Assembly (NCBI RefSeq): GCF_019039035.1
Contig: NZ_JAHNZT010000033.1
Location: forward strand, 1 to 64,000
From: Citreicoccus inhibens
Lineage (GTDB): Bacteria > Myxococcota > Myxococcia > Myxococcales > Myxococcaceae
Reading direction: 5' to 3'
DNA length: 64,000 nt
Shown one piece after another: positions 361 to 24,822 of this stretch (positions within the stretch are counted from its first letter, which is position 1; every line of letters begins with the position of its first letter). The notes beneath the pieces are model-generated. The model made no database searches and had not been told where the DNA came from. It saw nothing but the letters and a program-made list of their open reading frames with translations. Position numbers and translations under genes: made by a program.

Positions 361-493
361 TTACTGGCTACGAAGGCATCTGCACTGAGCGGATAGGCGC
401 ATCGGCGCCCTCAGTGTATGGGGCGGGATGACGCCGTTCTATCACTCCGAGGAGGTATGGCTTGGCTCAATCCTGTAGCGGGATGTTGCTCCC

Positions 494-3400
494 GTGCCCA
501 TCGCTCCCATTCCGTGCGCGGGTGATATCGCGCAGGTCCGCCATCGTCAGTATCTGGTCAACGAGGTCATTGCTCCTTCGGATGTCCGGGAGCAGCACAC
601 CCTCGTTCGTCTCACGTGTCTCGATGATGACTCACAGGGGCGCCCCCTGTCGGTCTTGTGGGAGCGTGAGCTTGCCGCTCGGGTCATCCGACCTGAACAG
701 GGTGGACTGGGAACGCCGGAGCGTTTCGACGAGCCCCGTCACTTCGCCGCGTATCTGCACGCGCTCAAGTGGAGCTCCGTCACCGCCACCGACGCCCGGC
801 TCTTCCAGGCGCCGTTCCGCGCGGGCATCCACTTGATGAATCACCAGCTCACGCCTCTCAAGAAGGCGCTTGAGCTGCCTCGGGTGAATCTCTTTATCGC
901 CGATGACGTAGGTCTCGGAAAGACCATCGAGGCGGGGTTGGTGTTGCAGGAACTCATCCTCCGCCAGCGTGTGGACCGTGTCCTCATCGTCTGCCCGGCG
1001 TCAGTGACGCTCCAGTGGCGCGATGAGATGGAGAAGCGCTTCGGTCTGCGCTTCGAAATCTTCAACAGCGAGTTTGTCTCCCGCCGCCGTCAGGAGCGCG
1101 GCTTCCAGGTCCCAGTCTGGGCCACGCACTCACGCTTCATCGTGTCGTACCAGACGCTGCGGCGCAGCGAGTACTTCGAACCGCTGAAGACACTCCTGGA
1201 GGAGAAGGGGTACCACAAGTCCTTGTTGGTGCTCGACGAGGCGCACGTTGTCGCGCCCGCCTCGGCCAGCCGCTACGCCATCGACACGGAGACCACTCGC
1301 AGCATCCGCTCACTGGCGGAGCGCTTCGAGCACCGGCTCTTCCTCTCCGCTACGCCGCACAACGGCCACTCGAACAGTTTCTCCGCGCTGTTGGAGATGT
1401 TGGACCCACAGCGCTTCACGCGGGGCACCCGCGTCCGCGAATCACAGCTGGCTCCCGTCATGGTGCGCCGGCTCAAGGGCGACCTTCGCGCCTTGGGCAG
1501 TTCACAGCGCTACCCCGAGCGGCTCGTGGTGGGCGTGCGGCTAACGCATGAATTGGGACGCTGGCACGCCGAGTGGCTCGCCCCGGATGGACAGACCGCC
1601 GAGCAGCGTGTCGACCTGGGCGAGGCCGCCGCCCCGGAACTGGAGCTGTCCCAGAAGCTCGCTCGCTACACGGAGCTCATGGCGCCCGGCACGAAGCAGG
1701 GGCGTCTGGTCTTCATCAACCTCCAGAAGCGCCTCCTCTCGAGCATCGAGGCGTTCCATCGCACTCTCTCCATTCATGCGGCGGCCTTCGGCGCGGGGAC
1801 GCTTGCTCCCGATGGCGGAGCGCTCACCGGCGACATGGCTCCTGAGTCCGAGGAGCATGGCGAAACGGACGAGGCGCTCGAGCTGTCGTTCGCGGAGAGC
1901 ATCCGCGAGCACAGTGAGCATCTGTCCGCCAGCGTCCAGGCGCGCAAGCTCCTGGATGACATGCTCCAGTTGAGCGCCCGGTACCGCGCTGCCCGGGATG
2001 CGAAGCTGCGGGCCCTGCTTCACTGGATTCGCGAGCATCAATGCCCGCTTACCCGAGGCGCCGCGTGGATGCCCCGTCGGGTCATCCTTTTCACTGAGTA
2101 TGGCGACACGCTCCGCTACCTCAAGGAGCAGCTCTCCTCCGCCTTCGAGGGGACCCAACGAGGGGATGAGCGCATCCTCACGCTGACGGGCGGCATCGAT
2201 GACGTGAAGCGCGCGGAAGTGCAGGCCGCCTTCAACGGCTCGATGGAGGAGTTCCCCGTGCGGGTCCTCCTCGCGACCGACGCCGCGCGCGAAGGCATCA
2301 ATCTGCAAGGTCACTGCGCGGACCTCTTCCACATCGACGTTCCGTGGAATCCCTCCCGCATGGAGCAGCGCAACGGTCGCATCGACCGTGCCCTGCAACC
2401 CGAGTCCACCGTGCGCTGTGGCTACTTCGTCTACGGCCAGCGCGCCGAGGATGCGGTGCTCGACACCCTCGCTCGCAAGGTCGAGACCATCACGCGTGAG
2501 TTGGGCAGCCTGGGTTGTGTGCTGATGGACCAGATGCACGATGCCCTCGCCTCGGGCATCACGAAGAGCACACTGGAGAGCCTCTCCCGTGCCGCGACCT
2601 CGACTCGTACGGAGGTGGCGAAGCGGGAACTGGAGTCCCAGCGCACGCTCCAATCCCTGCGCAAGGAACTGGATGCGATTGGAGAACTCCGCGAGCGCAG
2701 CGGCAAGGTCATGGACTTCAATCCCGTCCTGCTGCGCGATGCGCTGGACGTGGGGTTCGAATTGGCCGGCGCGGGCCGGTTGGAGCGGGAGGCCATCACG
2801 GAAGAGGGCCGGACGCTGGAGGCCTGGAAGGTCCCCGTCCTTCCCGCTTCGTGGAGCACGACCCTGGATTCCATTCGTCCGCGCCGGGAACACGACGAGG
2901 CCGCGTGGGAGTGGCGCAAGCGCCCCCTGTCTCCCGTCGTCTTCGAGGCGCCGCCGGGCGTTTCCAGCAAGCTCGTCCACCTGCATCTGTCCCATCCGCT
3001 CGTCCAGCGGGTGCTCCAGCGGTTCCTGGCGCAGGGGTTCTCCGCGAACGACCTGAGCCGTGTCACGGTGGTCCAGACCCAACGCGACGCAGTGGCGCGC
3101 GTCATTGTCTTCGGCCGGTTGTCTCTCTTTGGCGAGGGTGCCGCGCGGCTTCATGACGAGGTGGTCTCTGTTTCTGCAAGGTGGCTGGATGGCGGCGGCC
3201 GCGGGCACCTGAAGCCCTTCGCGGACGACGCGGACCGCAAGGCGATCGACCAACTGGAGACCACGCTGGCAGAGGCTCCCGCGCTCTCCGCGATCCCCAA
3301 AGCCGTCCAGAAGCGGTTGTTGGCCAGCGCCGAGTCCGACTTCTCGAAGCTCTGGTCCGCCGTCGAGGAACAGGCGTCGGTGCGAGAGCAGGGGGCTCGC

Positions 3401-3688
3401 AAGAAGCTGGCGGCGCGAGGGGCGGCCGAAGCCAAGGCGCTGACAGCAATTCTCCTGACACAGCAGGAGGCCATCCAGGAGGCACTGGGCGCGCAGCTCG
3501 AGCTCAAGCTCGACGCCCGAGTGGAGCAGGACCAATGGAGGAGGGACAAGGTCCATCTTGAACAGCGATTGACCGCGCTCGGAAGAGAGCTTGTCGAACA
3601 ACCTGAATCCTTGAAGGCCACCTACGCCGTGCGGGTCGCCCGACTGGTTCCCGTGGGCATGGTCTATCTGTGGCCGGGGGCACGCTGA
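494..3688 (+). CDS. drmD: DISARM SNF2-family helicase DrmD
   Basis: A 1064-aa SNF2-type ATPase, the signature helicase of class 1 DISARM phage-defence systems. The N-terminal lobe has a Walker A motif DDVGLGKT (residues 137-144) and DEAH (248-251). The C-terminal helicase lobe carries TDAAREGINLQ and motif VI QRNGRIDR (about 625-632). A long alpha-helical C-terminal half follows. The GTG at 494 is the first possible start after an in-frame stop at 476-478, and the protein begins with a plausible short lead into QVRHRQYLV. No good ribosome site precedes it: the strong GGAGG at 451-455 is too far away. The stop overlaps the drmMI start as TGATG. Function in defence is inferred from the family and operon. 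Confidence 0.9.
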   Translation: MPIAPIPCAGDIAQVRHRQYLVNEVIAPSDVREQHTLVRLTCLDDDSQGRPLSVLWERELAARVIRPEQGGLGTPERFDEPRHFAAYLHALKWSSVTATDARLFQAPFRAGIHLMNHQLTPLKKALELPRVNLFIADDVGLGKTIEAGLVLQELILRQRVDRVLIVCPASVTLQWRDEMEKRFGLRFEIFNSEFVSRRRQERGFQVPVWATHSRFIVSYQTLRRSEYFEPLKTLLEEKGYHKSLLVLDEAHVVAPASASRYAIDTETTRSIRSLAERFEHRLFLSATPHNGHSNSFSALLEMLDPQRFTRGTRVRESQLAPVMVRRLKGDLRALGSSQRYPERLVVGVRLTHELGRWHAEWLAPDGQTAEQRVDLGEAAAPELELSQKLARYTELMAPGTKQGRLVFINLQKRLLSSIEAFHRTLSIHAAAFGAGTLAPDGGALTGDMAPESEEHGETDEALELSFAESIREHSEHLSASVQARKLLDDMLQLSARYRAARDAKLRALLHWIREHQCPLTRGAAWMPRRVILFTEYGDTLRYLKEQLSSAFEGTQRGDERILTLTGGIDDVKRAEVQAAFNGSMEEFPVRVLLATDAAREGINLQGHCADLFHIDVPWNPSRMEQRNGRIDRALQPESTVRCGYFVYGQRAEDAVLDTLARKVETITRELGSLGCVLMDQMHDALASGITKSTLESLSRAATSTRTEVAKRELESQRTLQSLRKELDAIGELRERSGKVMDFNPVLLRDALDVGFELAGAGRLEREAITEEGRTLEAWKVPVLPASWSTTLDSIRPRREHDEAAWEWRKRPLSPVVFEAPPGVSSKLVHLHLSHPLVQRVLQRFLAQGFSANDLSRVTVVQTQRDAVARVIVFGRLSLFGEGAARLHDEVVSVSARWLDGGGRGHLKPFADDADRKAIDQLETTLAEAPALSAIPKAVQKRLLASAESDFSKLWSAVEEQASVREQGARKKLAARGAAEAKALTAILLTQQEAIQEALGAQLELKLDARVEQDQWRRDKVHLEQRLTALGRELVEQPESLKATYAVRVARLVPVGMVYLWPGAR

Positions 3689-6600
3689 TGAACGGGCAGA
3701 ACTTTGGCGGGGACGTCGAGCGTCGCTATCACCAGACCTGGATGGGGATGGCTCAGCCCATCGAAGGCTTGGTGGTCTCCATTCCGGTCCTCGAGGACGC
3801 GCAGTGCATGCAGCGTCTGCCGGTGTCCGCGCAGTCGCGGTTTGTCCTGCTGACGGGCCGGGAGTCGCCTCGCGTGACGGATGTCCCGCGCTTCCTCCGG
3901 GAGGTGCTGGGCTACACCGAGGACGATTTCACCACGAGGTTTCCGGAGGACCTCCAGCTCGATATCGCGGAGGGGCACCAGACGCTCACGCCCACGCGGG
4001 GGCTGTTGCGACGAGGGCCTCCTCCCACGAAGCCGGAAGGACTGCCGGATGATTCCACGCCCATCAGCCGCGCCGCGGAAGGCTTCGCGCTCCTGACGTG
4101 GGAGTTGCCGGTCGGGTTGGACCTGGACAAGAAGGAGGACACCACGGGCGCATGGTTCTACGAGCCCACCGCCAAGTTCGAGCGCCTGCTACGCGCGGCC
4201 CGTGTCCCCATCGGTCTGCTGTTCAACGGGGACTCCGTGCGCCTCGTCTATGCGCCCCACGGAGAGACGTCAGGGCACATCACCTTCCGGTTCAAGGACC
4301 TCGTCACCGCCAGCGGCCGTCCGCTGTTCGACGCGATGGTGATGCTCCTGCATGCGCGCCGCTTCTTCGGCGTGCTGCCCGAGCATCAGCTTCCCGCGCT
4401 CCTGGAGCAGTCACGCCGCCGGCAGGCGGATGTCACCGACGAACTGGCCGACCAGGTCCTGGAGGCGCTCGGCATCCTTCTCACGGGTTTCGAGACGGCC
4501 GCTGAACGGGATGGCTCCCGGGCCTTGGCCGAGGCGTTCTCGCGAGGTGAGGACCACGTTTATGGCGGGCTCCTCTCCACGCTCTTGCGGCTCGTCTTCA
4601 TCCTCTACGCGGAGGACCAGGGTCTGCTTCCCGTCGACCAGGAGCCCTACCGCGATGATTTGTCGGTGAAGGCACTTCACGCGCAGCTCGTCGAGGACTC
4701 CAGCCAATACCCCGATTCGATGAACCGGCGGTTCGGTGCGTGGCCACGGTTGTTGGCGCTCTTCCGGTGCATCTACTTAGGCGCCTCGCATGACAAGCTG
4801 CGAATGCCGGCACGGCGTGGACAGCTCTTCGACCCTGACGCGTTCCCCTTCCTGGGAGGTGCGAGTTCCGCCGAGGTGGGCACGGATGTGCGGGTGCCTC
4901 CCATTGATGACGAGACGGTCCTCCAGGTCCTGGAACGGCTCATCTTTCTCAAGGGACAGCGCCTGAGCTTCAAGTCGCTCGACGTGGAGCAGATTGGCTC
5001 CGTGTACGAGGGCCTGATGGGCTTCCACGTGAAGCGCCTGAGTGGCGCTGGAATCTGCCTCAAGCCTTCACGGGTATGGGTCTCGGTGCCCGAGGTGCTG
5101 GCCCAGCCCGCGAAGCGGCGTGCGGCATGGCTGGAAGGGGAGGTGGGCCTCGATGCGAAGGCGGTGAAAGCCCTGTCGAAGACGTTGGAGCAGGCTACGA
5201 CGCAGCAGTTGGTCCTGGCCGCGCTGGAGCCGTACCGCGTGAAGGGGACCGAGACACGGCGAGACCAGTGGGTACTCCAGCCTGGCGACGAGCGGCGACG
5301 GACCAGCAGTCACTACACGCCTCGTAGTCTGTCAGCGCCCATCGTCCGTCGGGCTCTGGAGCCTTTGCTCAAGACGATGGGGCCGCAGCCGTCTTCAGAG
5401 AGACTCCTCAACCTGAAGATCTGCGACCCGGCCATGGGGTCGGGTGCGTTCCTGGTGGAGTCCTGCCGTTTTCTCGCGGACCAGGTTGTCGCCGCTTGGA
5501 CACGTGAGGGCGTGCTGAAGCGTGACAAGCATGAGGACGAGGTGATGCGGGCACGCAGGCTGGTGGCTCAGCGATGCCTGTACGGCGTGGACAAGAATCC
5601 ATGGGCCGTGAAGCTCGCGAAGCTGTCGCTGTGGCTCGTGACGTTGGCGAAGACGGAGCCCTTCACCTTCCTGGACCATGCACTCAAGTGTGGGGATTCA
5701 CTGGTCGGGCTCGATCTGGATCAGCTTCAATCATTTCACTGGGCCCCGACCCGCAAGAAGCAGTCGGAGCTGTCCTGGGCGTTCATCTCGAAGGCGCTGA
5801 AGAGCTCGCTGGAGAAGCGCGAGAAGATCCTCCAACTCGCGCTCGACCTGGAAGGACCGGAGCGCAAGCCGCTGCAACTGGACTTGGAGCCCGGCCGGGT
5901 GAAGGAGGGGCTTCTGCGCGACGCGGACGTGGCGTTGGAGGACATCAAGCGGATCGCCAATGCGTGCGTCGGGGCGTTCTTCGCGCATGGCTCGGACAAG
6001 GAGCGGGAGAAGGAGCGCGTCCGCCGGTTGGACCTGATTGGGGTGTGGTTGTCCAAGGCGAAGAATGGTGTTCCGCCGCCCATGCCTGCGGACATCGCGG
6101 AGTTCTCCGCGCCGTCGTGGACGTTCCACTGGCCGCTGGAGTTCCCGGAGGTTTTCCACGGGAGCCGGCCGGATCCGCTCGACAACGAGCAGCCCAACAA
6201 GGCTGCATGGGTGGATGGGTTCGTGGGGAACCCTCCGTTCGCGGGAAAGAACGCCATCATTGAGGCGGGCGGAGCGAGCTATCTCCCTTGGCTCCAGGCG
6301 ATTCATGAGGGGGCGCATGGCAACGCGGATCTCTCCGCGCACTTCTTCCGCCGTGCGTTTCATCTGTTGGGCGAACACGGTAGCTTCGGATTCATCGCAA
6401 CGAACACCATCGCGCAGGGGGACACGAGGGCCACGGGGCTGAAGCACTTGGTGGACCATGGTGGCCACCTCTACGACGCTGTGCGCTCCATGAAATGGCC
6501 GGTGGCTGGCGCCAACGTCTCGGTGTCCGTGGTGCATTTGGCGAAGGGCCACGTCTCCGACCTGCAGTTGGAGCCGCGGCTGGACCATCTGCCCGTAACT

Positions 6601-7602
6601 CACCTGAACTCTCGACTGAGAGGAAAACCCGAGCGATCAGATCCAGAGATACTCACCGCCAATGCGGGGAAGAGCTTCCAGGGATGCATCGTCCTTGGGA
6701 TGGGGTTCGTTCTCAGCTCCGAGCAGCGATCAGCGCTCGTCGCGAAATCACCGAGGAACGTGGAACGCATCTTTCGCTATGTGGGCGGAGAAGAAATCAA
6801 CTCCGACCCGAGTCCCGAACTCGAAAGGCACGTCATCAACTTCGGGCAGATGGAATTACAGAAGGCGGAGCACTGGTCGGAACTCATTCGTATCGTACGG
6901 GAGTTGGTGAAACCTGAGCGAGACAAGAACAATAGGGAAAGCTACCGCAAGTGGTGGTGGCAGTTTGGCGAGAAGCGCATTGAACTACAGGAAGCACTTC
7001 GCCCCGTCGCTCGTTGCCTCACGACCTCTCGAGTCTCGAAGCACTTGATGTTCTCATGGCAGCCGTCGTCCGTTGTCTTCAGCGAGCAAGTCATTGTCAT
7101 CCCCGTAGAGCAGGACTGCTGGCAGACGGTGCTTCAATCGCGAGTTCATGAGGTCTGGGCCCGGCTTCTGTCGTCATCTCTCGAGGACCGCCTTCGTTAC
7201 GCACCAAGCGACTGCTTCGAGACATTCCCCTTTCCTGACTTCGGGAATGCATCGGCGCTCGACCGCATCGGCGAGCGGCTCCACTTTGAGCGCAGCCAGT
7301 ACATGCAGGCCCACAACATCGGTCTGACGACGACTTACAACCGGCTCAAGGACAAGTCCGTCACCGACACCGCGACGCAGTGCCTGCGGGACCTGCACGT
7401 GGCCGTAGACCAGTCCGTCCTGGACGCCTACGGATGGAAGGACATCCACGTCCCTTTGTACTGCGGCGCCACTCCCAAACAGCTCGAAGTCTTCGAAGAC
7501 GAAGTGCTCGACCGCCTCTTCGACCTGAACGCCCAGCGCGCACACGAGGAAGCCCATCCCACCGCCCGCCATCCCTCGAAATCCCGCGCCCAGACCGCGT
7601 GA
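3688..7602 (+). CDS. drmMI: DISARM adenine-N6 DNA methyltransferase DrmMI
   Basis: A 1304-aa Eco57I-like methyltransferase, the modification enzyme of class 1 DISARM, expected to mark host DNA by N6-adenine methylation. The SAM-binding motif I DPAMGSGAF lies at residues 580-588 and the catalytic NPPF motif at 848-851; the order (motif I before NPPF) is that of gamma-type enzymes. The region before motif I is a long N-terminal extension, and the region after NPPF should hold target recognition. ATG 3688 overlaps the drmD stop (TGATG), which supports this start over a GTG 18 bases earlier. Bases of about 6600-7215 (residues about 970-1175) are clearly poorer in GC than the flanks, with less biased codons, as if the specificity segment had been exchanged. 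Confidence 0.92.
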   Translation: MNGQNFGGDVERRYHQTWMGMAQPIEGLVVSIPVLEDAQCMQRLPVSAQSRFVLLTGRESPRVTDVPRFLREVLGYTEDDFTTRFPEDLQLDIAEGHQTLTPTRGLLRRGPPPTKPEGLPDDSTPISRAAEGFALLTWELPVGLDLDKKEDTTGAWFYEPTAKFERLLRAARVPIGLLFNGDSVRLVYAPHGETSGHITFRFKDLVTASGRPLFDAMVMLLHARRFFGVLPEHQLPALLEQSRRRQADVTDELADQVLEALGILLTGFETAAERDGSRALAEAFSRGEDHVYGGLLSTLLRLVFILYAEDQGLLPVDQEPYRDDLSVKALHAQLVEDSSQYPDSMNRRFGAWPRLLALFRCIYLGASHDKLRMPARRGQLFDPDAFPFLGGASSAEVGTDVRVPPIDDETVLQVLERLIFLKGQRLSFKSLDVEQIGSVYEGLMGFHVKRLSGAGICLKPSRVWVSVPEVLAQPAKRRAAWLEGEVGLDAKAVKALSKTLEQATTQQLVLAALEPYRVKGTETRRDQWVLQPGDERRRTSSHYTPRSLSAPIVRRALEPLLKTMGPQPSSERLLNLKICDPAMGSGAFLVESCRFLADQVVAAWTREGVLKRDKHEDEVMRARRLVAQRCLYGVDKNPWAVKLAKLSLWLVTLAKTEPFTFLDHALKCGDSLVGLDLDQLQSFHWAPTRKKQSELSWAFISKALKSSLEKREKILQLALDLEGPERKPLQLDLEPGRVKEGLLRDADVALEDIKRIANACVGAFFAHGSDKEREKERVRRLDLIGVWLSKAKNGVPPPMPADIAEFSAPSWTFHWPLEFPEVFHGSRPDPLDNEQPNKAAWVDGFVGNPPFAGKNAIIEAGGASYLPWLQAIHEGAHGNADLSAHFFRRAFHLLGEHGSFGFIATNTIAQGDTRATGLKHLVDHGGHLYDAVRSMKWPVAGANVSVSVVHLAKGHVSDLQLEPRLDHLPVTHLNSRLRGKPERSDPEILTANAGKSFQGCIVLGMGFVLSSEQRSALVAKSPRNVERIFRYVGGEEINSDPSPELERHVINFGQMELQKAEHWSELIRIVRELVKPERDKNNRESYRKWWWQFGEKRIELQEALRPVARCLTTSRVSKHLMFSWQPSSVVFSEQVIVIPVEQDCWQTVLQSRVHEVWARLLSSSLEDRLRYAPSDCFETFPFPDFGNASALDRIGERLHFERSQYMQAHNIGLTTTYNRLKDKSVTDTATQCLRDLHVAVDQSVLDAYGWKDIHVPLYCGATPKQLEVFEDEVLDRLFDLNAQRAHEEAHPTARHPSKSRAQTA

Positions 7603-7610
7603 GGCTTCCC

Positions 7611-10600
7611 ATGCATGCTGCTGACACGGGAGCGGTCCGCTCCCACCTCATCGATGCGCTCGAAGCGGACCTCGTCGGTCCGTTCCACAAGCCTCCAGGT
7701 GCTGCCGTCTCGGACACCCCGGAAGTGCTCCGCACGCCACCGTCTCGCTGGTACCTGACGGGCTTCCTCGTTCCGCTCGACCAGGGTGTCATCGAGGATG
7801 ACCCTGACGACGAGGAAGACGACCTGGCCGCGGGCAATGACGAGGACCACGAGGACGCCTCCCGACCTGATCCGACCGCCAAGAAGGTGCGCCGCCTGCC
7901 CGCATCCATGGGCCTGTCCGTCTTCGTCCCCGCGGGCGCATCCCAGCTCGCCGCCCATGTCTGTTGGGCGGACTATCAGCGCATCGAAGCAGAGGGTCGC
8001 AAGCACTGGAGCCGCACCTTCCACCAACGCACCGTCACCCTGTCACTGAACGACGCGACACTGCGGGAAGGCATGTACCTCCAGGACGGTCGGGGCCTGC
8101 GCCTGGAAGGCCACGTGGAGAAGACGCGCGAAGGCGAGCTCGCGGTCGCCATCTTCCTCGTCAACGCGCGTCCGCCCACCAGCACCGCCGCCGACCGGGA
8201 CGAGGCCTATGCCTTCCAGACCCACCTCGCCCTGGAATGCGAGCAAGGCTTCGTCAGCCGACAGGACTCCAGCGACGCCATGAGCGAGGACGACGACGAC
8301 CGCGTCAACGACCTCCAGTTCCGCGACCGCCAGCGGTGGGCCGTGGGTCATGGCATCTCCGTGCGCATCCCATCAGTCTCCGTCCCCGTCATCCGCGTGG
8401 AAACGGATTGGCTGCCACGCGTCGAGGTGCTCCCTGTCGAAGCGCGGCAGATTCACGAAGTCACGGTCGGCATGGAGCTGCTCGCCGCGTTCGCAACCCC
8501 CGCAGAGGCCGTTGCGGCCCTGCTCCCTCTGGTCCGGACCTACCGTGAATGGGTGGCCACCCAGGCCACTCTCGCTGTCGGCAGTGAACGCCGCGAGGAG
8601 ACACGGGATGAGCTCATCCGCAGGGCTCGACGCGCGGCTGATCGCATCGAGGAGGGTATCCAACTCCTGACTCGGGAGCCTCTCGCCTTCGACGCCTTCC
8701 GCTGGATGAACAGCGTCATGGCCCAGGCGGAGCGAAAGGTGCGGCAGGGAGAAGCGCCCCAATGGCGTCTCTTCCAGCTCGCCTTCATCCTGCTCAACCT
8801 CCCCTCCGTTGAGCACGAAGGCCACGCGGACCGTGAGCTCGTGGAGCTCATCTTCTTCCCCACCGGAGGCGGAAAGACGCAGGCCTACCTGGGGCTGATT
8901 GCCTTCACCTTGCTCCTGCGCCGTCTCCGCGGTCAGGCCTACCTCCACGGCGGCCTGGGTGTGGCCGTGCTGCTGCGCTACACGCTGCGGTTGCTCACTC
9001 TCGACCAACTGGGGCGCGCCGCGACACTCATCTGTGCGCTCGAAGTGCTCCGCCAACAAGAGCCGAAGCGCCTGGGCGCAGTGCGCTTCTCCATCGGCCT
9101 GTGGGTCGGCCGCTCCGCGACTGCCAACACGCTGGAGCAGGCATCCACGCAGATTACCGAGTACAAGAATGACAACAGCCCCCGCGCGCAATCGCCGTTC
9201 CCGCTCGCCACCTGCCCCTGGTGCGCCACACCGTTCGAACGGGAGTGCTTCATCCTCCGGCCGTCCAAGTCCAGACCCGAGGAAGTGCTCGTCGGCTGCG
9301 CCAACATCGCGTGCGCCTTCAACCTCGGCCGCAACCCGGAAGGGCTCCCCGTCCTCTTCGTCGACGAGCAGATCTACCGCGAGCTGCCGTGCTTCCTCGT
9401 CGCCACCGTGGACAAGTTCGCCATGCTGCCGTGGCGTGGAGAGACGGGATTGCTCTTCGGTCGCGTCTTGGGGCGCACCGGAAAGCGCTTCGTCGGCCCG
9501 TGCAACGCTGCCGCGGACGTGAAGGCGGCGCTCGTGACGCTCCCGAAGGGGCTGCCTCCTCCCGAGCTCATCGTCCAGGACGAACTGCACCTCATCTCCG
9601 GCCCATTGGGCTCCATGGTGGGCCTCTACGAAGGCGCCGTCCTGACGCTCGCGCCTCGGGCGAAGTTGGTGGCCTCCACCGCCACCGTCCGCCGCTCCCG
9701 GCAACAGGTGAGTCGCCTCTATGGGCGGGACGTCGCGCTCTTCCCTCCGCCAGGGGTGGATGCCTCCGAGACGTTCTTCGCCTCCGTGGGCAAGAAGGGC
9801 GCGCGCCAATACGTGGGCGTGGCGGCACCGGGGCGGCCCATGAAGGCCATCCTGCTGCGCGTCTATGTCAGCCTGCTCGCCGCCGCCTCGCGCGGCGAGC
9901 AGCTTCACGGCGCCGTGAGCGCGGACCCGTACCTGACGCTCGTCGGCTACTTCAACAGCTTGCGCGAACTGGGCGGCATGCGCCGGCTGGTCGAGGACGA
10001 GGTTCGCCGACTGGTGATGGACCGCGTTCGCCGTCGTCCAGAGGACTTCGGCAGAGAGGCCGAGCATCCCTGGTATCGGGGCAGGACCATCCGCGGCGAG
10101 CCCATCGAGCTGACCAGCCGGGAGAAGACCGCTGACATCAAGGCCTCGAAGAGCCGCCTGGAGCTCACGCACGGCCAGCCCCAGAGCATCGACGTCGTGC
10201 TCGCCAGCAACATGATCTCCGTCGGCGTGGACATCGACAGGTTGGGACTCATGGTCGTGGCGGGACAGCCCAAGACGACCAGCGAGTACATCCAGGCGTC
10301 CAGCCGCGTGGGCCGCAAGATGAACAAGCCCGGCCTCGTGGTGACGTGCCTCAACGCGGCCAAGCCCCGCGACCGCAGCCACTACGAGCGCTTCGGGACG
10401 TATCACGAGTCGTTCTATCGCTTCGTCGAAGCCACCTCGGTGACACCCTTCTCGGCTCCGGCGCTCGACCGGGGGCTCGCGGGCGTGGTGGTGGCGCTGG
10501 GCCGGCTGCTGGACACCGCCATGACCGCGCCCCTGGAGTGGAAGTCCCTTCAGGCACACCGCGACGCGCTGGAGCAGGCGCTCGAAACCCTGGCGAAGCG

Positions 10601-10949
10601 CGCTGGCCGCGGGCTGCCCAAGGCGGAGTCCGAGCGGGCCAGCGGCATCGTGATGCAGCGAGCGCGAAGCCTGCTCGACTCGTGGCGCAACATCATCGAG
10701 CAGGCGAAGAAGGACGCCGCGCAGCGCGCGTACTCGCCCTACGACCCGGAGGGAAAGGGGCTCAAGCCCCTGCTGCGCGGCTTCCTGGACCCCACTGACA
10801 ACCTCACCCAGGACGAACTCAAGTTCGAGGCGCCGACGTCCATGCGTGACGTGGAGTCCTCGGTACACCTGTGGATTTCACGTCAACCCCTGGGCGGCTA
10901 CCGCGCCCCGAAGGCCGCGACGGAGGAGGTAGCGCATGACGAATCGTAG
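7611..10949 (+). CDS. drmA: DISARM helicase DrmA
   Basis: A 1112-aa helicase, one of the three core DISARM proteins (with DrmB and DrmC). The N-terminal 400 residues contain an acidic linker. The helicase core has Walker A TGGGKT (418-423), a DELH motif (657-660) in place of DEAD/DEAH, and late motifs ASNMISVGVDID and QASSRVGRK. A CxxC pair (CPWC) and a later CANIAC lie between lobes and could bind zinc. ATG 7611, nine bases after the drmMI stop, is the natural start; the frame remains open upstream, but only inside drmMI. The stop overlaps drmB by 14 bases. DrmA with DrmB is known from the Bacillus system to bind DNA and block incoming phage DNA; that role here is by homology. Confidence 0.92.
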   Translation: MHAADTGAVRSHLIDALEADLVGPFHKPPGAAVSDTPEVLRTPPSRWYLTGFLVPLDQGVIEDDPDDEEDDLAAGNDEDHEDASRPDPTAKKVRRLPASMGLSVFVPAGASQLAAHVCWADYQRIEAEGRKHWSRTFHQRTVTLSLNDATLREGMYLQDGRGLRLEGHVEKTREGELAVAIFLVNARPPTSTAADRDEAYAFQTHLALECEQGFVSRQDSSDAMSEDDDDRVNDLQFRDRQRWAVGHGISVRIPSVSVPVIRVETDWLPRVEVLPVEARQIHEVTVGMELLAAFATPAEAVAALLPLVRTYREWVATQATLAVGSERREETRDELIRRARRAADRIEEGIQLLTREPLAFDAFRWMNSVMAQAERKVRQGEAPQWRLFQLAFILLNLPSVEHEGHADRELVELIFFPTGGGKTQAYLGLIAFTLLLRRLRGQAYLHGGLGVAVLLRYTLRLLTLDQLGRAATLICALEVLRQQEPKRLGAVRFSIGLWVGRSATANTLEQASTQITEYKNDNSPRAQSPFPLATCPWCATPFERECFILRPSKSRPEEVLVGCANIACAFNLGRNPEGLPVLFVDEQIYRELPCFLVATVDKFAMLPWRGETGLLFGRVLGRTGKRFVGPCNAAADVKAALVTLPKGLPPPELIVQDELHLISGPLGSMVGLYEGAVLTLAPRAKLVASTATVRRSRQQVSRLYGRDVALFPPPGVDASETFFASVGKKGARQYVGVAAPGRPMKAILLRVYVSLLAAASRGEQLHGAVSADPYLTLVGYFNSLRELGGMRRLVEDEVRRLVMDRVRRRPEDFGREAEHPWYRGRTIRGEPIELTSREKTADIKASKSRLELTHGQPQSIDVVLASNMISVGVDIDRLGLMVVAGQPKTTSEYIQASSRVGRKMNKPGLVVTCLNAAKPRDRSHYERFGTYHESFYRFVEATSVTPFSAPALDRGLAGVVVALGRLLDTAMTAPLEWKSLQAHRDALEQALETLAKRAGRGLPKAESERASGIVMQRARSLLDSWRNIIEQAKKDAAQRAYSPYDPEGKGLKPLLRGFLDPTDNLTQDELKFEAPTSMRDVESSVHLWISRQPLGGYRAPKAATEEVAHDES

Positions 10950-12783
10950 GAAGTGGACCAAGGCCCGCTCGACGCGGCCGCCGGATGGGCGCGTGCGCCA
11001 GAGCCAAGTGGTCTCCACCTTCGGTCCGGGCAGCATGCTGGACCTGCTGAACGACGCAGTTCTCGTGGGCGGTCTGGACTTCTGGCGGCTCAAGGGCCAG
11101 GGCGAGGTGGTCAACGAGCCACGGCTGCTGGAGATCGTCGAACCGCTCTACCATCGCAACAAGTGGCCGCTCAGCAAGGAAGCCCCCTTCCGCAAGCCCC
11201 CTGCTGGGGATGAGCGAGAGCCGACCGAGTCCTGCGGCATCCAGGTGTATGAGTTTCCGCGCTGGTTTGTCTGCCAGAACCCCCACTGCCGCACGCTGGT
11301 GCGGGCCAACAGCTTGGAGCGCGTGAACCAGGAGTACCGCCATCGCTGTGCGGGGGTGGACGCGAAGCCCGAGCGCTGTGTGCCAGTGCGCTTCGTCGCG
11401 GCCTGTCCCCGGGGGCACCTGTCGGACATCGACTGGAGCTGGTGGATGCACGAGCGCAAACCTTGCGACGCCCCACAGCTCAAGCTCGAGGAGGGCGTGA
11501 GCGGTGACTTCAGTGACATCGAGGTCGCGTGCTCGACGTGCGGCAAGCGCAGGCGCCTCATCGACATGACCCACAAGGAGCAGCAGGACCGCTGCGAAGG
11601 GGAGCGGCCCTGGCTGGGATTGGAGGCGCGGGAGCGCTGCGACGAGAAGCAGCGACTGCTGGTCCGCACCGCCAGCAACGGCTACTTCGCGCAGACCACC
11701 AGCGCCATCACCATCCCTGAACCGGAGTCGCTCCGTCGCAAGGTGCAGTCCGCGTGGAGCATCCTCCAATCCGCCACCGCGGAGACCCTGCCGGCCTTCC
11801 GGACCATTGCCCAGGTGCAGGCGGCGCTCGGCTCCGCCTCCAACGCGGAGGTGCTGGGGGCCATCACCGCGGAGCGCGAGCACACGCCCGAAGTCGTCCC
11901 GGAGATCCGCACCGCGGAGTGGCTCCAGTTCCTCTCCCAGCCACAGGAGAAGCCTGGCGAGATGCCCCGGGACCGCACCGAGGTCTTCTGGGCCCGGCGC
12001 ATCGCTCGGCCCCAGGGGCTGCCCTCGCTGGTCGAACGCGTGGTGCTGGCGCGACGGCTGCGGGAGGTCCAGGCCCAGGTCGGCTTCACGCGGCTGGAGC
12101 CCCTGTCGAAGGACCTCCAGGGCCGCTACGACCTGGACGTGGCGCTCGCGCCGATGTCGCTCCACCGGGACTGGATACCCGTCACGGAGATGCAGGGCGA
12201 GGGCATGCTGCTGGTGCTCGACGAGCAGCAGGTGCATGCGTGGGAGATGTCCGAGCCCGTGCTGCGGCGCGAGGAGGTTCTGAGGGCTGGGTATGAACGC
12301 TGGAAGCAGGGCTCCGGCTCGAAGCTCCTCTTCCCGGGCGTGCGGCTCTACCTGCTCCATTCGCTGGCGCACCTGTTGATGACGGAGGTGGCGTTGGAGT
12401 GTGGCTATCCCGCGAGCTCCATCCGCGAGCGGCTCTACTGCGCGCCGCACAGCGACGCGGTCCCCATGGCGGGCATGCTGTTGATGACGGGCACCACGGG
12501 CGCGGAAGGCACCCTGGGCGGACTGGTGGAGGAGGGGAGGCGACTGGGGCAGCACCTTGCCCGGGCGCTGGAAGACGCGCGCCTCTGCTCCAACGACCCC
12601 GTCTGCGCGCATCACGAACCCACGGGCCGTGACGACCGAGACCTGGAGGGCGCCGCGTGCCACGGGTGCCTCTTCCTCCCCGAGTGCTCCTGCGAGCGCT
12701 TCAATCAGTACCTCGATCGCGCGCTCGTCGTGCCCACGCTGGGCCACGAGGACGTCGCCTTCCTGAAGACGCCGTGGACCTGA
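10936..12783 (+). CDS. drmB: DISARM DUF1998 protein DrmB
   Basis: A 615-aa core DISARM protein carrying a C-terminal DUF1998 domain, partner of DrmA. Cysteine clusters suggest zinc sites: CQNPHC near residue 115, CSTCGK near 200, and a C-terminal group CHGCLFLPECSC near 575-586. The DUF1998-like part includes LLHSLAHLLMTEVALECGY. ATG 10936 follows a strong Shine-Dalgarno (GGAGGAGGT) and overlaps the end of drmA by 14 bases, implying translational coupling. The length and cysteine pattern fit the family. Confidence 0.92.
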   Translation: MTNRRKWTKARSTRPPDGRVRQSQVVSTFGPGSMLDLLNDAVLVGGLDFWRLKGQGEVVNEPRLLEIVEPLYHRNKWPLSKEAPFRKPPAGDEREPTESCGIQVYEFPRWFVCQNPHCRTLVRANSLERVNQEYRHRCAGVDAKPERCVPVRFVAACPRGHLSDIDWSWWMHERKPCDAPQLKLEEGVSGDFSDIEVACSTCGKRRRLIDMTHKEQQDRCEGERPWLGLEARERCDEKQRLLVRTASNGYFAQTTSAITIPEPESLRRKVQSAWSILQSATAETLPAFRTIAQVQAALGSASNAEVLGAITAEREHTPEVVPEIRTAEWLQFLSQPQEKPGEMPRDRTEVFWARRIARPQGLPSLVERVVLARRLREVQAQVGFTRLEPLSKDLQGRYDLDVALAPMSLHRDWIPVTEMQGEGMLLVLDEQQVHAWEMSEPVLRREEVLRAGYERWKQGSGSKLLFPGVRLYLLHSLAHLLMTEVALECGYPASSIRERLYCAPHSDAVPMAGMLLMTGTTGAEGTLGGLVEEGRRLGQHLARALEDARLCSNDPVCAHHEPTGRDDRDLEGAACHGCLFLPECSCERFNQYLDRALVVPTLGHEDVAFLKTPWT

Positions 12784-13460
12784 GCGGCGTGGCGACGTTG
12801 GACCTGGAGCGGCTGATGGCCGTGGTGCGCACGCGGCGGCTCGGGTTTCCGTTGTCCCGACTGGCGCTCCAGGGAGAGGGGTTGGAGTGGCTGGCGGGGG
12901 AGGTCGCGGCGTTGAACGCGCTGGGACGAGAGGGAACGCTGGTGCTGCTGGACACGGTGCTCGTGGAACGGCGCGCGGGTGCCCGGCGGCCAGAGTTGGT
13001 CTGGACGGGACCCGAGGCCCGCTGGAGCGGCGCTCGCGACACGGCGGTGGTGCTGGCGGACCTGTTCCACAAGGCCACGAGCACGGTGCTGGTGGCCGGG
13101 TTCACGTTCGACCACGCGGCGGACGTGTTGGGGCCGCTGCACACAGCCCTCCAGCGAGGCGTGAGTGGCAGGCTCTATGCGAGCGCCTCGGTGGCCACGG
13201 CGTTCCTGCGAGAGCACTGGCCCTTCGGTCCCCCCTTTCCGGAGTGCCACGGCTTCTCACCCGGGAGGGAGGTCTTCGCCAGCCTGCATGCGAAATGTGT
13301 CGTGGTGGACGCACGTTGGGTCTTCGTGACGTCCGCGAACTTCACGAACCGAGGACAGACACGGAACATCGAAGTGGGCGTACTGCTGGAGGACACGCAT
13401 CTGGCCGCGGTGCTGGAGGCCCAGTTCTCCACGGGGGAGTGGTTCTCACGGGTCGCCTGA
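12774..13460 (+). CDS. drmC: DISARM phospholipase D-like protein DrmC
   Basis: A 228-aa protein with a single phospholipase-D/nuclease HKD motif: H172, K174 and D179 within SLHAKCVVVD, followed by SANFTNRG. This is the third core DISARM gene. In the studied Bacillus system DrmC was the least essential component; whether it cuts DNA is not settled. The chosen GTG at 12774 overlaps the end of drmB by ten bases; GTG 12789 is an alternative start 15 bases later. It is the last gene of the operon, and a hairpin follows its stop codon directly. Confidence 0.88.
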   Translation: MDLSGVATLDLERLMAVVRTRRLGFPLSRLALQGEGLEWLAGEVAALNALGREGTLVLLDTVLVERRAGARRPELVWTGPEARWSGARDTAVVLADLFHKATSTVLVAGFTFDHAADVLGPLHTALQRGVSGRLYASASVATAFLREHWPFGPPFPECHGFSPGREVFASLHAKCVVVDARWVFVTSANFTNRGQTRNIEVGVLLEDTHLAAVLEAQFSTGEWFSRVA

Positions 13461-13461
13461 T

Positions 13462-13476
13462 CCGGCGTTGCGCCGG
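13462..13476 (+). terminator. Hairpin after drmC
   Basis: A perfect six-base stem CCGGCG / CGCCGG with loop TTG starts two bases after the drmC stop. No U-run follows, so it may act with Rho or only protect the 3' end. Position at the end of a five-gene operon is the main support. Confidence 0.45.
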
Positions 13477-13484
13477 TGCGTAGC

Positions 13485-13500
13485 GGCAGTGGCCACTGCC
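13485..13500. repeat. 16-bp perfect palindrome
   Basis: GGCAGTGGCCACTGCC is a perfect palindrome nine bases after the drmC-proximal hairpin. It could be a second terminator stem, a regulator site for the lipoprotein gene starting at 13677, or part of the right edge of the DISARM insertion. Confidence 0.4.
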
Positions 13501-13676
13501 AACGCGTCCTGTGCAGTCTGCTCCAGGCGGTCCGGCGGCCCACCGAGCGCATTCATTCGGGTTGTCCGCTCCTTCTGCGAGGCCGCATCGGGTCCATCAT
13601 GTCCTGCTGGCTTCCTTTGGGGGCGTCGATGCGCCCATCTCTGACTTTCGTTCGCTCTCCTCGCTATGCTTTTGCG

Positions 13677-14984
13677 ATGACCGGACCCCATTTCGTTGTT
13701 CGACACGTCCCCTCCTTGTTGGTGGGACGGCGTGGGGTGCTGGGCTGGTTGGCGCTGCTCGTGTCCGCCGCCTGTGGCCGGGATGGCCATACCGCTCGAA
13801 TCAAGTCTGTCGAAGCCTCGGGCTGGCGTGGGTTGTTGTACCTCCGTCAAGAACGCCCTGGGGCCCCTCGAGACCTCTGGGTCCAATCGCTGGATGGAGC
13901 GCGTCGCGTCGCGCTTACGGACAGTGGCCTGGTAGCCGCCTGGGAGCGCCCCCGGGTCGAGGGCGCCATCAACGGAGCGGTGATCTCTCCGGATGGCGCG
14001 CGCGTGGCCTACGCGGAGCGTCATCCCGTCGCAGTGAAGGAGGGGGCGTCTGCTCCCGCGCAGGCGTGGAATGTCTTATTCGTGGTGAACGCCGACGGCA
14101 CGGGCCGGCGAAAGCTGGTGGACCTGCGCGAGCCTCCGTTCTCGCCGGCCGCCGTGCGGGCCGGTAGCTTCATCTGGTCCTCGGACGGAGCGCGGCTGGC
14201 CTATGTCCTTGAGACCCTCGAGGGCGGCTGTGCGCGCGTGAGCCTTCACCAGGTGGAGGTCGATTCCGCCAGGGGGACCTCCCTTCCTCTTGACGTTCCC
14301 CTCGGGGACACCCAGTTGCTCGTCTGGGACACTTCTCGGGATGTGCTCTCATTCGCGAGTCTTTGCGGTGTGACGGAGGAGCAGCGGCTGGGGGGCCTGC
14401 GGATGTCCACGGGAGCCCTGTGGACCCTCCCCGCCGAGAGGCCCTCCGTCTCGCCTGATGGCGTGCGCGCTTTCGTGCCAGCCTCGGTGCTTCCCAGCGG
14501 AAAGGCAGCGTGGCTGACCTTCGATTCACAGGGCGATGGCTTCACGCGGGAGCCCGTGCTGGAAGCGCCCTCCTGGGGGCGGTTCAATTGGTACCAGACG
14601 CACGCCGGGGGGCTCTTCACGGCGGTGACGCCCGAGCGTCAATCCCTGGAGTGCACGGGCGTCACACCTCAGCCACAGCGCCTCTATCGTTGGGATGCCA
14701 ATGCGCGTGCCCTCCAACTGGTACGCCACGACGCGACGGCGTTCTCGACGCTGGCCTTCTCTCCTGATGACACGCAGGCACTGGTGAGCATTCTGGTCGG
14801 ACGGGATGCCTCCCTCCCCGGCTTCTGTGGTGACGGCTGGCTCCGGCAGCTCTACCTCGTCCCAAGGGAGGCGCTGGAGAGCGAGCTTCCCCCCGAGCAA
14901 CTTCTCGCGCGGAGCATCGCCTTGGAGCCCCCGACGATGTGGCCAGGAGCCTCGAGCTTCCACTTCATCGGTTGGCTGCGATGA
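13677..14984 (+). CDS. Beta-propeller lipoprotein (WD40/PD40-like)
   Basis: A 435-aa protein with an N-terminal lipoprotein-type signal ending near LLVSAAC and repeated propeller strings: ISPDGARVAYAE, WSSDGARLAYV, VSPDGVRAF and FSPDDTQALVS. These are typical of TolB/PD40-like blades. It is probably exported and lipid-anchored; no enzyme motif is visible. ATG 13677 was chosen because it sits immediately before the signal sequence; the frame is open upstream to about 13476, but that part is Arg-rich and unlike an N-terminus. It stands alone between the DISARM operon and the radical SAM cluster. Confidence 0.75.
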   Translation: MTGPHFVVRHVPSLLVGRRGVLGWLALLVSAACGRDGHTARIKSVEASGWRGLLYLRQERPGAPRDLWVQSLDGARRVALTDSGLVAAWERPRVEGAINGAVISPDGARVAYAERHPVAVKEGASAPAQAWNVLFVVNADGTGRRKLVDLREPPFSPAAVRAGSFIWSSDGARLAYVLETLEGGCARVSLHQVEVDSARGTSLPLDVPLGDTQLLVWDTSRDVLSFASLCGVTEEQRLGGLRMSTGALWTLPAERPSVSPDGVRAFVPASVLPSGKAAWLTFDSQGDGFTREPVLEAPSWGRFNWYQTHAGGLFTAVTPERQSLECTGVTPQPQRLYRWDANARALQLVRHDATAFSTLAFSPDDTQALVSILVGRDASLPGFCGDGWLRQLYLVPREALESELPPEQLLARSIALEPPTMWPGASSFHFIGWLR

Positions 14985-15134
14985 CGCTGGCCGTCGTGGG
15001 CCCTGTCCGCCTCGGCCAGTCTCCTCACCTCGCCCCGGCAATGTAGGAGCTGAAGCGTGTCGGCTGAATCCTCTCACGCGACAACGACCTTGACGCTCAT
15101 CGAAGTCAAGGATGGTCCCGAGGACCTGGGCTGA

Positions 15135-15158
15135 GAATGCCCCATCGCTGGGGTATTC
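15135..15158 (+). terminator. Hairpin terminator-like element
   Basis: GAATGCCCCA and TGGGGTATTC form a ten-pair stem (one G:U pair) around the loop TCGC, followed by TT. It lies 150 bases after the propeller lipoprotein gene and 500 bases before the radical SAM gene, so it would insulate the two transcripts. Confidence 0.5.
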
Positions 15159-15331
15159 TTAACCCCTCACTTCGCTCCCGAATCCACCCAATGGGTATTC
15201 CTGGCAGTGTCCTGACTCGCGTATGCCCTTCATGCCGGCATTCCGGGTAGGCGCAAAATTCAGCTTATGCGTACCTTGACATGAAGTTGCGGGACGTTTA
15301 GAAGGCGACACGTCATCACCAATCGGCCGGG

Positions 15332-15388
15332 ATGGTGTGCAGATTGACTGCGCATTGGCACGGGTGCGCGACGTTTGCGCCCTGTTGA
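15332..15388 (+). CDS. Possible leader mini-ORF upstream of the radical SAM cluster
   Basis: ATG 15332 opens an 18-codon frame, MVCRLTAHWHGCATFAPC, whose TGA overlaps a second ATG (15388) of a 12-codon frame, MCGGWSSDGGLP. The second frame ends inside the hairpin at 15411-15440. Three cysteine codons in the first and one in the second would suit a cysteine-sensing leader ahead of sulfur-metabolism genes, or even a precursor peptide for the radical SAM enzyme. There is no convincing ribosome site, and frames this short arise easily by chance, so this is a low-confidence record. Confidence 0.15.
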   Translation: MVCRLTAHWHGCATFAPC

Positions 15389-15410
15389 TGTGCGGTGGGT
15401 GGAGCAGTGA

Positions 15411-15440
15411 CGGGGGATTGCCGTAAGGCAGCCTGCCCCG
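15411..15440 (+). promoter_or_regulatory. Structured leader element (GNRA hairpin)
   Basis: An outer stem CGGGG / CCCCG encloses an inner stem TGCC / GGCA capped by the GNRA tetraloop GTAA, about 220 bases before the radical SAM start. It does not match any riboswitch I can recognise by eye. The whole 14985-15661 stretch (677 bases) otherwise holds only the upstream hairpin and no credible gene; it presumably contains the cluster promoter. Confidence 0.35.
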
Positions 15441-15661
15441 GGCGTAGCAGTCGGCAGAGGGGGAGCATCTCGTGATTCTTGGGGCGGCAGGACTCGTTCC
15501 GTTGCGGGCGCCAGATGCGGCGGACGGTTCGTTTGCCCCGTGGTTTCTCTTCTCCTCTCCGTTGCTCCCGATGCGCCACGATTCCCCCTCAGCCGAGTGG
15601 GCACGTCGGGTCTTGCTCTATCCGAAGTGGATTCCCGTAGCACCGAACAGGGGTTCCCGCC

Positions 15662-16912: not shown

Positions 16913-17037
16913 GCCGGCTTGCGTGATAATTGCTTCACGGCGGCGCGGAGCAGCTGTTCGCCCTGCGCCGCATGCTTGGCAGGCCCCCACGCTCGCGCCG
17001 CGCGGAGGGAGTGGGCACTGACACGAGGCCGCGACAC

Positions 17038-18240: not shown

Positions 18241-18350
18241 CCTCACCTGGAGCCAGAGGGCCTCGCGCCCTTGTGCCGGCCTGTCCACGCTGCTCGCCAG
18301 CCTGGTTCCCGTTGATCTAGTCTCCCGGGCTCGAACCTCCACCCAAAGGG

Positions 18351-19211: not shown

Positions 19212-19242
19212 CTCCCCTCCTCGACGGCGCAAGGAACTCCTC

Positions 19243-20466: not shown

Positions 20467-20523
20467 ACCACGCCGGGCCGCGTCTCGCGGTCCGCTCGGT
20501 CCGACATCTCATTGGAGCAACCC

Positions 20524-21738: not shown

Positions 21739-21744
21739 CGAGAA

Positions 21745-21762
21745 GCGCGGCGGGGGCCGCGC
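21745..21762. terminator. Shared terminator hairpin between convergent genes
   Basis: A seven-pair GC stem GCGCGGC / GCCGCGC with loop GGGG fills the 30-base gap between the PLP enzyme (plus) and the DUF5916 gene (minus). It could serve both transcripts; there is no U-run. Confidence 0.5.
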
Positions 21763-21768
21763 GTTGAC

Positions 21769-24357: not shown

Positions 24358-24822
24358 GTCCTGGCTCCGAAGTGACGCGTGATTCCTCCGAGAGCAACTC
24401 GTGGCACGCGCGAGCAGGCCGCCTTCTTTCACAGCTTCATTCGTCTGTCATCACCTCACCGGCGCTGCTCGAGTCCTCGTTGCTTGACCGCGCTTTCATT
24501 CACCGCCGCTGATGCAGCGCTTGCCCATGCACACCCTGGTCGGCATGGGAGGGGGCTTCCGTTTCCGCGTCTCGGAGCGTGAGGGCATTGTGGATGCGCC
24601 ACATGGACTCCCAAGCACTGCTTGGAGGGGGCCGCGCGACCATGACCCTGGGTCAGCCTGGACGTCGCGGCTCGGAGGGACAGTCGTCCAGGGGCGCCGC
24701 GGTGCGCGAACACGTGGTGGGCAGGAGGGGCGCATGCCCTGGCTGGGAAGAGGTGTTTCCTCGGTGCGCCTGCGCTTGCTTTGGGTCGCGTTGTCTCGTG
24801 ATGGCGAGGTTGCCCCTGGGCT
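24358..24822. other. Intergenic stretch, no gene seen
   Basis: These 465 bases separate the start of the DUF5916 gene from the end of the AraC regulator gene. Open frames on both strands here have unnatural Arg/Pro-rich translations and no good start signals. It should hold the promoter of the DUF5916 gene; no clear motif was found. Confidence 0.5.

What the first reader, a model, noticed from the sequence alone, without database searches (positions are those of the whole stretch)
494..13460. Complete class 1 DISARM anti-phage operon
All five expected genes are present with intact motifs and overlapping junctions: SNF2 helicase DrmD, adenine methyltransferase DrmMI, helicase DrmA, DUF1998 DrmB and PLD-like DrmC. 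The class 1 set (drmD plus drmMI rather than drmE plus drmMII) is the less-studied branch experimentally.
Basis: partly seen in the sequence, partly recalled or inferred. Interest (0 to 1): 0.7.

Follow-up and report, generated by a model that had tools for sequence, protein, structure and literature searches.

The report
DISARM operon with shuffled recognition domain
This is an intact copy of a known bacterial anti-phage system (class 1 DISARM) in a myxobacterium. Relatives carry nearly identical copies that differ mainly in the part of the methyltransferase that reads DNA, which appears to be reassorted between strains and so probably gives each strain its own 'self' mark.

Summary
Confirmed: window 494-13460 holds a complete, undamaged class 1 DISARM operon (drmD, drmMI, drmA, drmB, drmC). 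Family models, solved DrmA/DrmB relatives, intact motifs and low dN/dS all agree. The window starts at a contig end, so the upstream neighbourhood is unknown. DrmA is the known short form (NCBIfam DrmAS). The operon itself is a new member of a known kind, common in Myxococcaceae (28 of 96 genomes have a drmMI relative).

The less ordinary result came from comparing 18 orthologous operons. They are near-uniform (about 19% divergence at fourfold-degenerate sites), except in one block, DrmMI residues about 960-1192, where it rises to 37-54%. This block is the target recognition domain (TRD). It shows strong internal mosaicism (PHI-type z -28; other segments 0.4 to -3.9). Several variable residues align with MmeI's base-contacting residues. 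The pair equivalent to MmeI Glu806/Arg808, which sets the last base, is always E-R (8) or R-D (10), never mixed, and reassorts against the other determinants. No residue elsewhere in the operon covaries with it beyond chance.

Best reading: class 1 DISARM diversifies its methylation motif by recombination between strains, while the DrmABC/D machinery stays motif-blind or takes its specificity from DrmMI. The target motifs themselves are not shown.

The parts
364..493 (+). Upstream region shared with other Myxococcus DISARM loci just before drmD; holds an imperfect palindrome (about 441-458, ATCACTCC-GA-GGAGGTAT), possible operator or promoter
   Evidence: 76% identity over 131 nt to the L117 left flank although no other match to that flank was found; alignment of 8 upstream regions. 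Function inferred.
494..3688 (+). drmD, SNF2-family helicase, 1064 aa
   Evidence: PADLOC DrmD 1026 bits; NCBIfam DISARM_DrmD 1067.6 bits, cut-off 610; GLGKT, DEAH, SATPH and QRNGRIDR intact in 18/18 orthologues
3670..7602 (+). drmMI, N6-adenine DNA methyltransferase, 1310 aa (alternative ATG start at 3688)
   Evidence: PADLOC DrmMI 1243 bits over the whole length; Pfam MmeI_Mtase and MmeI_TRD; model of the C-terminal part matches MmeI 5HR4 at E 3.5e-17
5425..5451 (+). Methyltransferase motif I, DPAMGSGAF (AdoMet binding)
   Evidence: 18/18 orthologues; mostly invariant columns in A1
6226..6240 (+). Methyltransferase motif IV, GNPPF (catalytic)
   Evidence: 18/18 orthologues; invariant columns in A1
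6547..7251 (+). Hypervariable, mosaic target recognition domain of DrmMI (residues 960-1194)
   Evidence: Fourfold-site divergence 37-54% against an operon median of 19%; PHI-type z -27.9 against 0.4 to -3.9 elsewhere; Pfam MmeI_TRD at 1012-1190
6679..6690 (+). Residues 1004-1007 (Q-G-C-I here), aligned with MmeI Tyr642/Lys645, the position-2 reader; Q..I or V..Y in most relatives
   Evidence: Profile alignment A1 to 5HR4, E 3.7e-26; allele table
7084..7089 (+). Residues 1139-1140 (E-Q here), aligned with MmeI Asn773/Ala774, readers of positions 3 and 4; variable in relatives
7180..7191 (+). Residues 1171-1174 (L-E-D-R here; M-R-N-D in other alleles), aligned with MmeI Leu805-Arg808, which includes the position-6 reader
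7611..10949 (+). drmA, short-form YprA-family SF2 helicase, 1112 aa
   Evidence: NCBIfam DISARM_DrmAS 1104 bits, cut-off 950; Serratia DrmA 7S9V E 3.8e-165; PTGGGKT, DELH and SRVGR in 18/18
7791..7856 (+). Acidic stretch of DrmA (IEDDPDDEEDDLAAGNDEDHED) at the position of the autoinhibitory trigger loop of Serratia DrmA (residues 176-232)
   Evidence: Alignment resumes at DrmA residue 82 = Serratia residue 220, so the acidic run lies just before it; trigger loop defined in PMC9142583. Equivalence inferred from position.
10851..10853 (+). DrmA Val1081, equivalent of Serratia Val1296, the proposed methylation-sensing residue
   Evidence: SMRDVE aligned with SMREVE; PMC9142583
10936..12783 (+). 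drmB, DUF1998/MZB partner of DrmA, 615 aa
   Evidence: NCBIfam DrmB_fam 542.9 bits, cut-off 240; Serratia DrmB 7S9V_B E 2.5e-92; Pfam MZB
12774..13460 (+). drmC, PLD-family candidate nuclease, 228 aa
   Evidence: PADLOC DrmC 349 bits; Pfam PLDc_2 and PLDc; HxKxxxxD at 13287-13310

Best explanation
This is a functional class 1 DISARM operon. DrmMI methylates an adenine in a short, asymmetric, strain-specific DNA motif and so marks the host chromosome as self. DrmA-DrmB is an autoinhibited helicase that loads on unmodified phage or plasmid DNA with exposed 5' ends and, with DrmD and the dispensable nuclease DrmC, stops its replication. The motif is set only by the TRD of DrmMI. This changes the self mark while the rest of the operon stays constant. 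Shown here: the gene set, intact motifs, purifying selection, hypervariability and mosaicism confined to the TRD, positional match of several variable residues to MmeI base readers, no covarying residue elsewhere, and no second TRD copy in the genomes tested. Inferred: defence activity, methylation, the motif itself, and that recombination is selected to change the motif.
For: Gene identity and integrity. Homology to the solved DrmAB, including Val1296 and the trigger-loop position. TRD-only divergence: fourfold-site divergence 37-54% over DrmMI residues about 960-1192 against a median of 19%, falling back to about 17-25% on both sides. Recombination: PHI-type z -27.9 in the TRD, 0.4 in an equal-length control, -0.9 to -3.9 elsewhere; TRD distances follow backbone distances poorly (Spearman 0.28 against 0.69 between backbone genes). 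Residue mapping to MmeI: E 3.7e-26, contacts from PMC4833311. Position-6 pair only E-R (8) or R-D (10), with all four combinations against position 2 and position 3; 14 of 15 rows of a wider DrmMI table have an E-R or R/K-D pair. No residue among 510 variable columns outside the TRD tracks the position-6 state beyond permutation. Nine genomes each hold exactly one TRD. dN/dS 0.08-0.17 per gene.
Against: No methylome or phage assay is available. DrmMI and MmeI share only about 15% identity, so residue mapping may be off by one; the residue aligned with MmeI Glu751 (Leu1117) is invariant, unlike a specificity residue. The excess variability of all mapped contacts over the rest of the TRD is modest (one-sided p 0.019). 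One of the distant DrmMI sequences (L043) has R-A instead of a charged pair. Eighteen alleles from one family are a small sample, and shuffled-label controls do not remove all shared ancestry.
Confidence: 0.8

Rival explanations
1. An ordinary class 1 DISARM whose TRD variability reflects deep, balanced polymorphism or relaxed constraint in one domain, without recombination or functional change of motif.
For: High divergence alone could come from old alleles; hypervariable TRDs are common in restriction-modification systems (for example PMC3983042, seen only as a search abstract).
Against: Relaxed constraint does not raise fourfold-site divergence, which doubles here. The strong clustering of incompatible sites and the reassortment of the E-R/R-D pair with other determinants need recombination. 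The charge pair is never mixed, so function is maintained.
Confidence: 0.12
2. DrmMI gives specificity for restriction as well as methylation: the DrmA/B/C/D machinery is recruited to unmethylated sites by DrmMI itself, as PglX does in BREX.
For: No residue in DrmA-D covaries with TRD type. PglX is a fold relative in the model search and is the sole specificity factor of BREX (PMC11341690). DrmMI has a 500-residue N-terminal region with no match to solved structures that could be a docking surface.
Against: Bravo et al. report that DrmAB acts by DNA structure and methylation state, without sequence, and cite work in which targeting is enhanced when methylation target sequences are absent (PMC9142583). 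No DrmMI-DrmAB contact is known to me.
Confidence: 0.3
3. DrmMI is itself a restriction-methylation (type IIL/IIG) enzyme with an active nuclease at its N terminus, and cuts the DNA on its own.
For: PADLOC type IIG models score up to 580 bits and the N terminus weakly matches Pfam MmeI_N.
Against: MmeI_N is under its cut-off; I saw no D...E-x-K pattern among the conserved columns of 24 N-terminal regions; the predicted N-terminal model matches no solved structure.
Confidence: 0.05

Closest known systems
Class 1 DISARM of Serratia sp. SCBI (DrmAB structures 7S9V/7S9W)
   Same: DrmA (E 3.8e-165) and DrmB (E 2.5e-92) homologous over most of their length; the Val1296 equivalent is conserved; an acidic stretch lies at the trigger-loop position
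   Different: DrmA is the short form (NCBIfam DrmAS, 1112 aa against 1325): about 60 residues precede the loop instead of about 175, too few for the EVE-like domain reported for class 1 DrmA (PMC12458937). No cytosine methyltransferase seen here, whereas the Serratia operon has one.
MmeI and the type IIL restriction-modification family
   Same: Methyltransferase and TRD fold; variable DrmMI positions fall on several MmeI base-contacting residues; same E-R versus K/R-D alternatives at the residues that set base pair 6
   Different: Only about 15% identity; no evidence of the MmeI nuclease; part of a DISARM operon
BREX PglX/BrxX
   Same: MmeI-like methyltransferase with one TRD in a multi-gene anti-phage operon; PglX variability is also described as a way to change specificity (PMC11341690)
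   Different: Operon partners are DISARM proteins; no PglX model reaches its cut-off; variation here is inter-strain mosaicism with no sign of local cassettes
ARMADA (DISARM-related systems, PMC12458937)
   Same: Share the BrxHII/RapA-like helicase, a PglX-like methyltransferase and a YprA-family helicase
   Different: Here the DUF1998 part is a separate gene (DrmB) and DrmC is present, the DISARM arrangement; DrmA passes the DISARM DrmAS cut-off

Membership tests
DISARM (core) | drmA helicase next to a separate DUF1998 gene drmB | tested here: met
   NCBIfam DrmAS 1104 bits (cut-off 950) and DrmB_fam 543 bits (cut-off 240), adjacent with a 14-nt overlap; homology to 7S9V chains A and B
DISARM (core) | PLD-domain protein drmC | tested here: met
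   PADLOC DrmC 349 bits, Pfam PLDc_2; NCBIfam DrmC_I 132.6 bits, just below the cut-off of 133
DISARM class 1 | drmD SNF2 helicase and drmMI adenine methyltransferase, in place of drmE and drmMII | tested here: met
   NCBIfam DISARM_DrmD 1067.6 bits (cut-off 610); PADLOC DrmMI 1243 bits; no drmE or drmMII among the ORFs scanned, though upstream is cut off by the contig end
DISARM class 1 | EVE-like domain at the N terminus of DrmA (as stated in PMC12458937) | tested here: not met
   Only about 60 residues precede the loop; the open frame further upstream lies within drmMI and the start is conserved at ATG 7611. Judged by length, without a fold test. NCBIfam has a separate short-form DISARM DrmA family, which this protein passes, so it remains DISARM but not the EVE-bearing form.
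DISARM | Anti-phage activity and motif methylation | not testable with these tools
   Needs phage assays and a methylome
Type IIL (MmeI) restriction-modification | MmeI-like methyltransferase and TRD | tested here: met
   Pfam MmeI_Mtase 61.4 and MmeI_TRD 55.7, both over the cut-off of 27; Foldseek 5HR4 E 3.5e-17
Type IIL (MmeI) restriction-modification | Active nuclease in the same polypeptide | tested here: inconclusive
   MmeI_N below cut-off; no conserved E-x-K pattern seen; no structural match
BREX | PglX with PglZ and other brx genes | tested here: not met
   PglX models score 24-31 bits against cut-offs of 400-900; the neighbouring genes are DISARM genes

The most novel reading that the evidence does not exclude
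In class 1 DISARM, DrmMI is the only sequence-reading part for both self-marking and attack. Its TRD is a set of small, nearly per-base modules that are traded horizontally between strains, so each strain carries its own epigenetic barrier on a constant DISARM chassis.
Probability: 0.3. Interest if true: 0.65.

Novelty: new member of a known kind. Interest (0 to 1): 0.42.

Why it matters
The operon alone is ordinary. The comparison gives a set of at least 18 natural operons, most of them highly similar outside the TRD, that differ mainly in the DNA-reading domain of one protein. They act as natural TRD swaps. They make testable an open question about DISARM: whether its attack on phage DNA depends on the methyltransferase's motif or only on DNA structure and methylation state. 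The E-R versus R-D pair also gives a concrete prediction for the last base of the motif, and suggests that the MmeI specificity code extends to DISARM methyltransferases. In the 5.39-million-paper library, searches for DrmMI and for DISARM with TRD or recombination returned no paper that I recognised as describing this, judged from titles, abstracts and the passages read; subscription papers and preprints are mostly missing from that library.

Tried and rejected
Phase variation by local silent TRD cassettes: not supported, since the window genome and eight relatives with complete or near-complete assemblies each hold exactly one TRD match. An early drmA start at GTG 7380: rejected (orthologues start at ATG 7611 and the frame upstream lies inside drmMI). 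A nuclease in DrmMI: no support. A covarying motif reader in DrmA-D: none above permuted labels. The empty site: not found; [quoted passage not shown] Locating Serratia SCBI DrmMI (motif ACACAG) to calibrate the position-6 rule: not among the listed best plasmid records and not otherwise reachable. The Cutibacterium acnes DISARM methylome gave no genuine motif (PMC7365801). The class 1 DISARM preprint and the original DISARM paper are not held.
Full report
Observation. PADLOC assigns DrmD (494-3688), DrmMI (3670-7602), DrmA, DrmB (10936-12783) and DrmC with strong scores. NCBIfam agrees for DrmD, DrmA (short form, DrmAS) and DrmB above curated cut-offs, and for DrmC 0.4 bits below. DrmA starts at ATG 7611: orthologues begin there, and the longer frame from GTG 7380 lies inside drmMI. 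DrmC most likely starts at GTG 12774. No gene has an internal stop, catalytic motifs are conserved in orthologues (DrmC's HAKCVVVD string in 14 of 15, the others in 18 of 18), and pairwise dN/dS is 0.08-0.17. The window starts at base 1 of contig C50, so nothing can be said about genes further upstream.

Surroundings and distribution. The host belongs to the Myxococcaceae: nearest operons come from records named Myxococcus and Corallococcus. A drmMI relative was found in 28 of 96 genomes of the family, so presence is patchy. Flanking DNA is mostly unrelated between Myxococcus copies, while short stretches before drmD (about 50-130 nt) and after drmC (about 50-160 nt) are shared by some of them, so the operon seems to move as a compact unit. 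The ORFs scanned in the right flank of the window (13476 to 24432) gave no defence matches. Corallococcus-type copies do share flanks. Three of the 18 operons lack drmC (L121, L125, L127), in line with its reported dispensability (PMC9142583).

Core machinery. DrmA and DrmB align over most of their length with the solved Serratia proteins (E 3.8e-165 and 2.5e-92). The residue proposed to sense methylation, Val1296, corresponds to Val1081 here (SMRDVE/SMREVE). A strongly acidic stretch (7791-7856) sits where Serratia DrmA has its autoinhibitory trigger loop; equivalence is inferred from position only. The N terminus is too short for the EVE-like domain reported for class 1 DrmA (PMC12458937); other Myxococcota and a Nostoc-labelled record also start at about the same point. 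NCBIfam already has a short-form family, so this is a known variant.

The TRD. Across 18 operons (window plus L115-L131), fourfold-degenerate-site divergence averages 16-20% in drmA, drmB, drmC and drmD. It is 10-33% along most of drmMI, and 37-54% in residues about 960-1192. Amino-acid identity there falls to 60-83% per window. Elevated synonymous divergence cannot come from relaxed protein constraint. Within the 14 Myxococcus-like alleles, pairwise distances of the DrmMI backbone correlate with those of drmA and drmD (0.69) but poorly with those of the TRD (0.28). The nearest neighbour of the window allele changes several times along the block.

Which residues vary. A profile of 32 DrmMI sequences aligns with MmeI (5HR4) at E 3.7e-26, and an AlphaFold2 model of the C-terminal part (mean pLDDT 74.7) has MmeI as its best match at E 3.5e-17. 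The MmeI base contacts were taken from PMC4833311. Residues aligned with MmeI 642/645 are Q..I or V..Y (Q..T in one); with 773/774 they are E, H or N followed by Q, G, S, A or T; with 806/808 they are E-R in 8 alleles and R-D in 10, never mixed; with 810 Arg is invariant. In MmeI, E-R specifies C:G and K-D specifies G:C at base pair 6. All four combinations of the position-6 pair with position 2 and with position 3 occur, and all 18 alleles are distinct combinations. In a wider table of 15 DrmMI rows (the window and 14 relatives down to 39% identity), 14 have E-R, R-D or K-D and one has R-A. Mapped contacts are more variable than other TRD positions, but only modestly (one-sided p 0.019), and the residue aligned with MmeI Glu751 is invariant, so the mapping is not exact everywhere.

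No partner. Among 510 variable columns outside the TRD, none tracks the position-6, position-2 or position-3 state beyond what shuffled labels give. The genomes checked hold one TRD each, so variation is between strains, with no sign of switching from stored cassettes.

Interpretation. The operon is a class 1 DISARM system and most likely active, given purifying selection. The best-supported addition is that its methylation motif is diversified by recombination in the DrmMI TRD. Two mechanisms remain open: DrmAB may read only DNA structure and methylation state (the Bravo model), or DrmMI may also direct attack, as PglX does in BREX. The natural allele set is suited to separate them. Prediction from the MmeI rule, moderate confidence: the window allele (E1172-R1174) methylates a motif ending in AC, and R-D alleles one ending in AG. 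The reported Serratia motif ACAC(mA)G has the same layout (adenine fifth of six) and predicts an R/K-D pair in that enzyme, which could not be checked here.

Limits. No methylation or phage data; small allele set; low identity to MmeI; E-values and z-scores do not remove shared ancestry; the literature search covers only openly licensed papers.

Noticed in passing
L020:640-6637, L029:7952-9903, L135:12093-13790: In more distant Myxococcota operons the junctions next to drmMI carry inserted genes between drmMI and drmA or drmD. These include an IetA-like AAA ATPase (PADLOC 237 bits, L020), a HEC-01A-like AAA ATPase with a DUF4276-like gene (L029) and a Schlafen/AlbA_2 protein (L135), so this junction may be a nesting site for other defence modules.
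   Followed up: partly
window 441-458 and upstream regions of L115, L117, L121, L123, L125-L127: Imperfect palindrome (ATCACTCC-GA-GGAGGTAT and variants, sometimes duplicated) just before drmD in several relatives; possible operator of an unidentified regulator.
   Followed up: no
L121, L125, L127: Three Myxococcus-type operons with intact drmD-drmMI-drmA-drmB have no drmC.
   Followed up: partly
L136 and L140 (same genome, G066): One genome carries two drmMI genes on different contigs, 69% and 48% identical to the window's, so two DISARM-like systems may coexist.
   Followed up: no
L021: A record titled Comamonas sp. KCTC 72670 holds a DISARM operon about 95% identical to Myxococcus copies; the record name is probably wrong.
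   Followed up: no
window DrmMI residues 1-545 (3670-5304): The 500-residue N-terminal region of DrmMI is conserved and well modelled (mean pLDDT 83) but matches no solved structure.
   Followed up: partly
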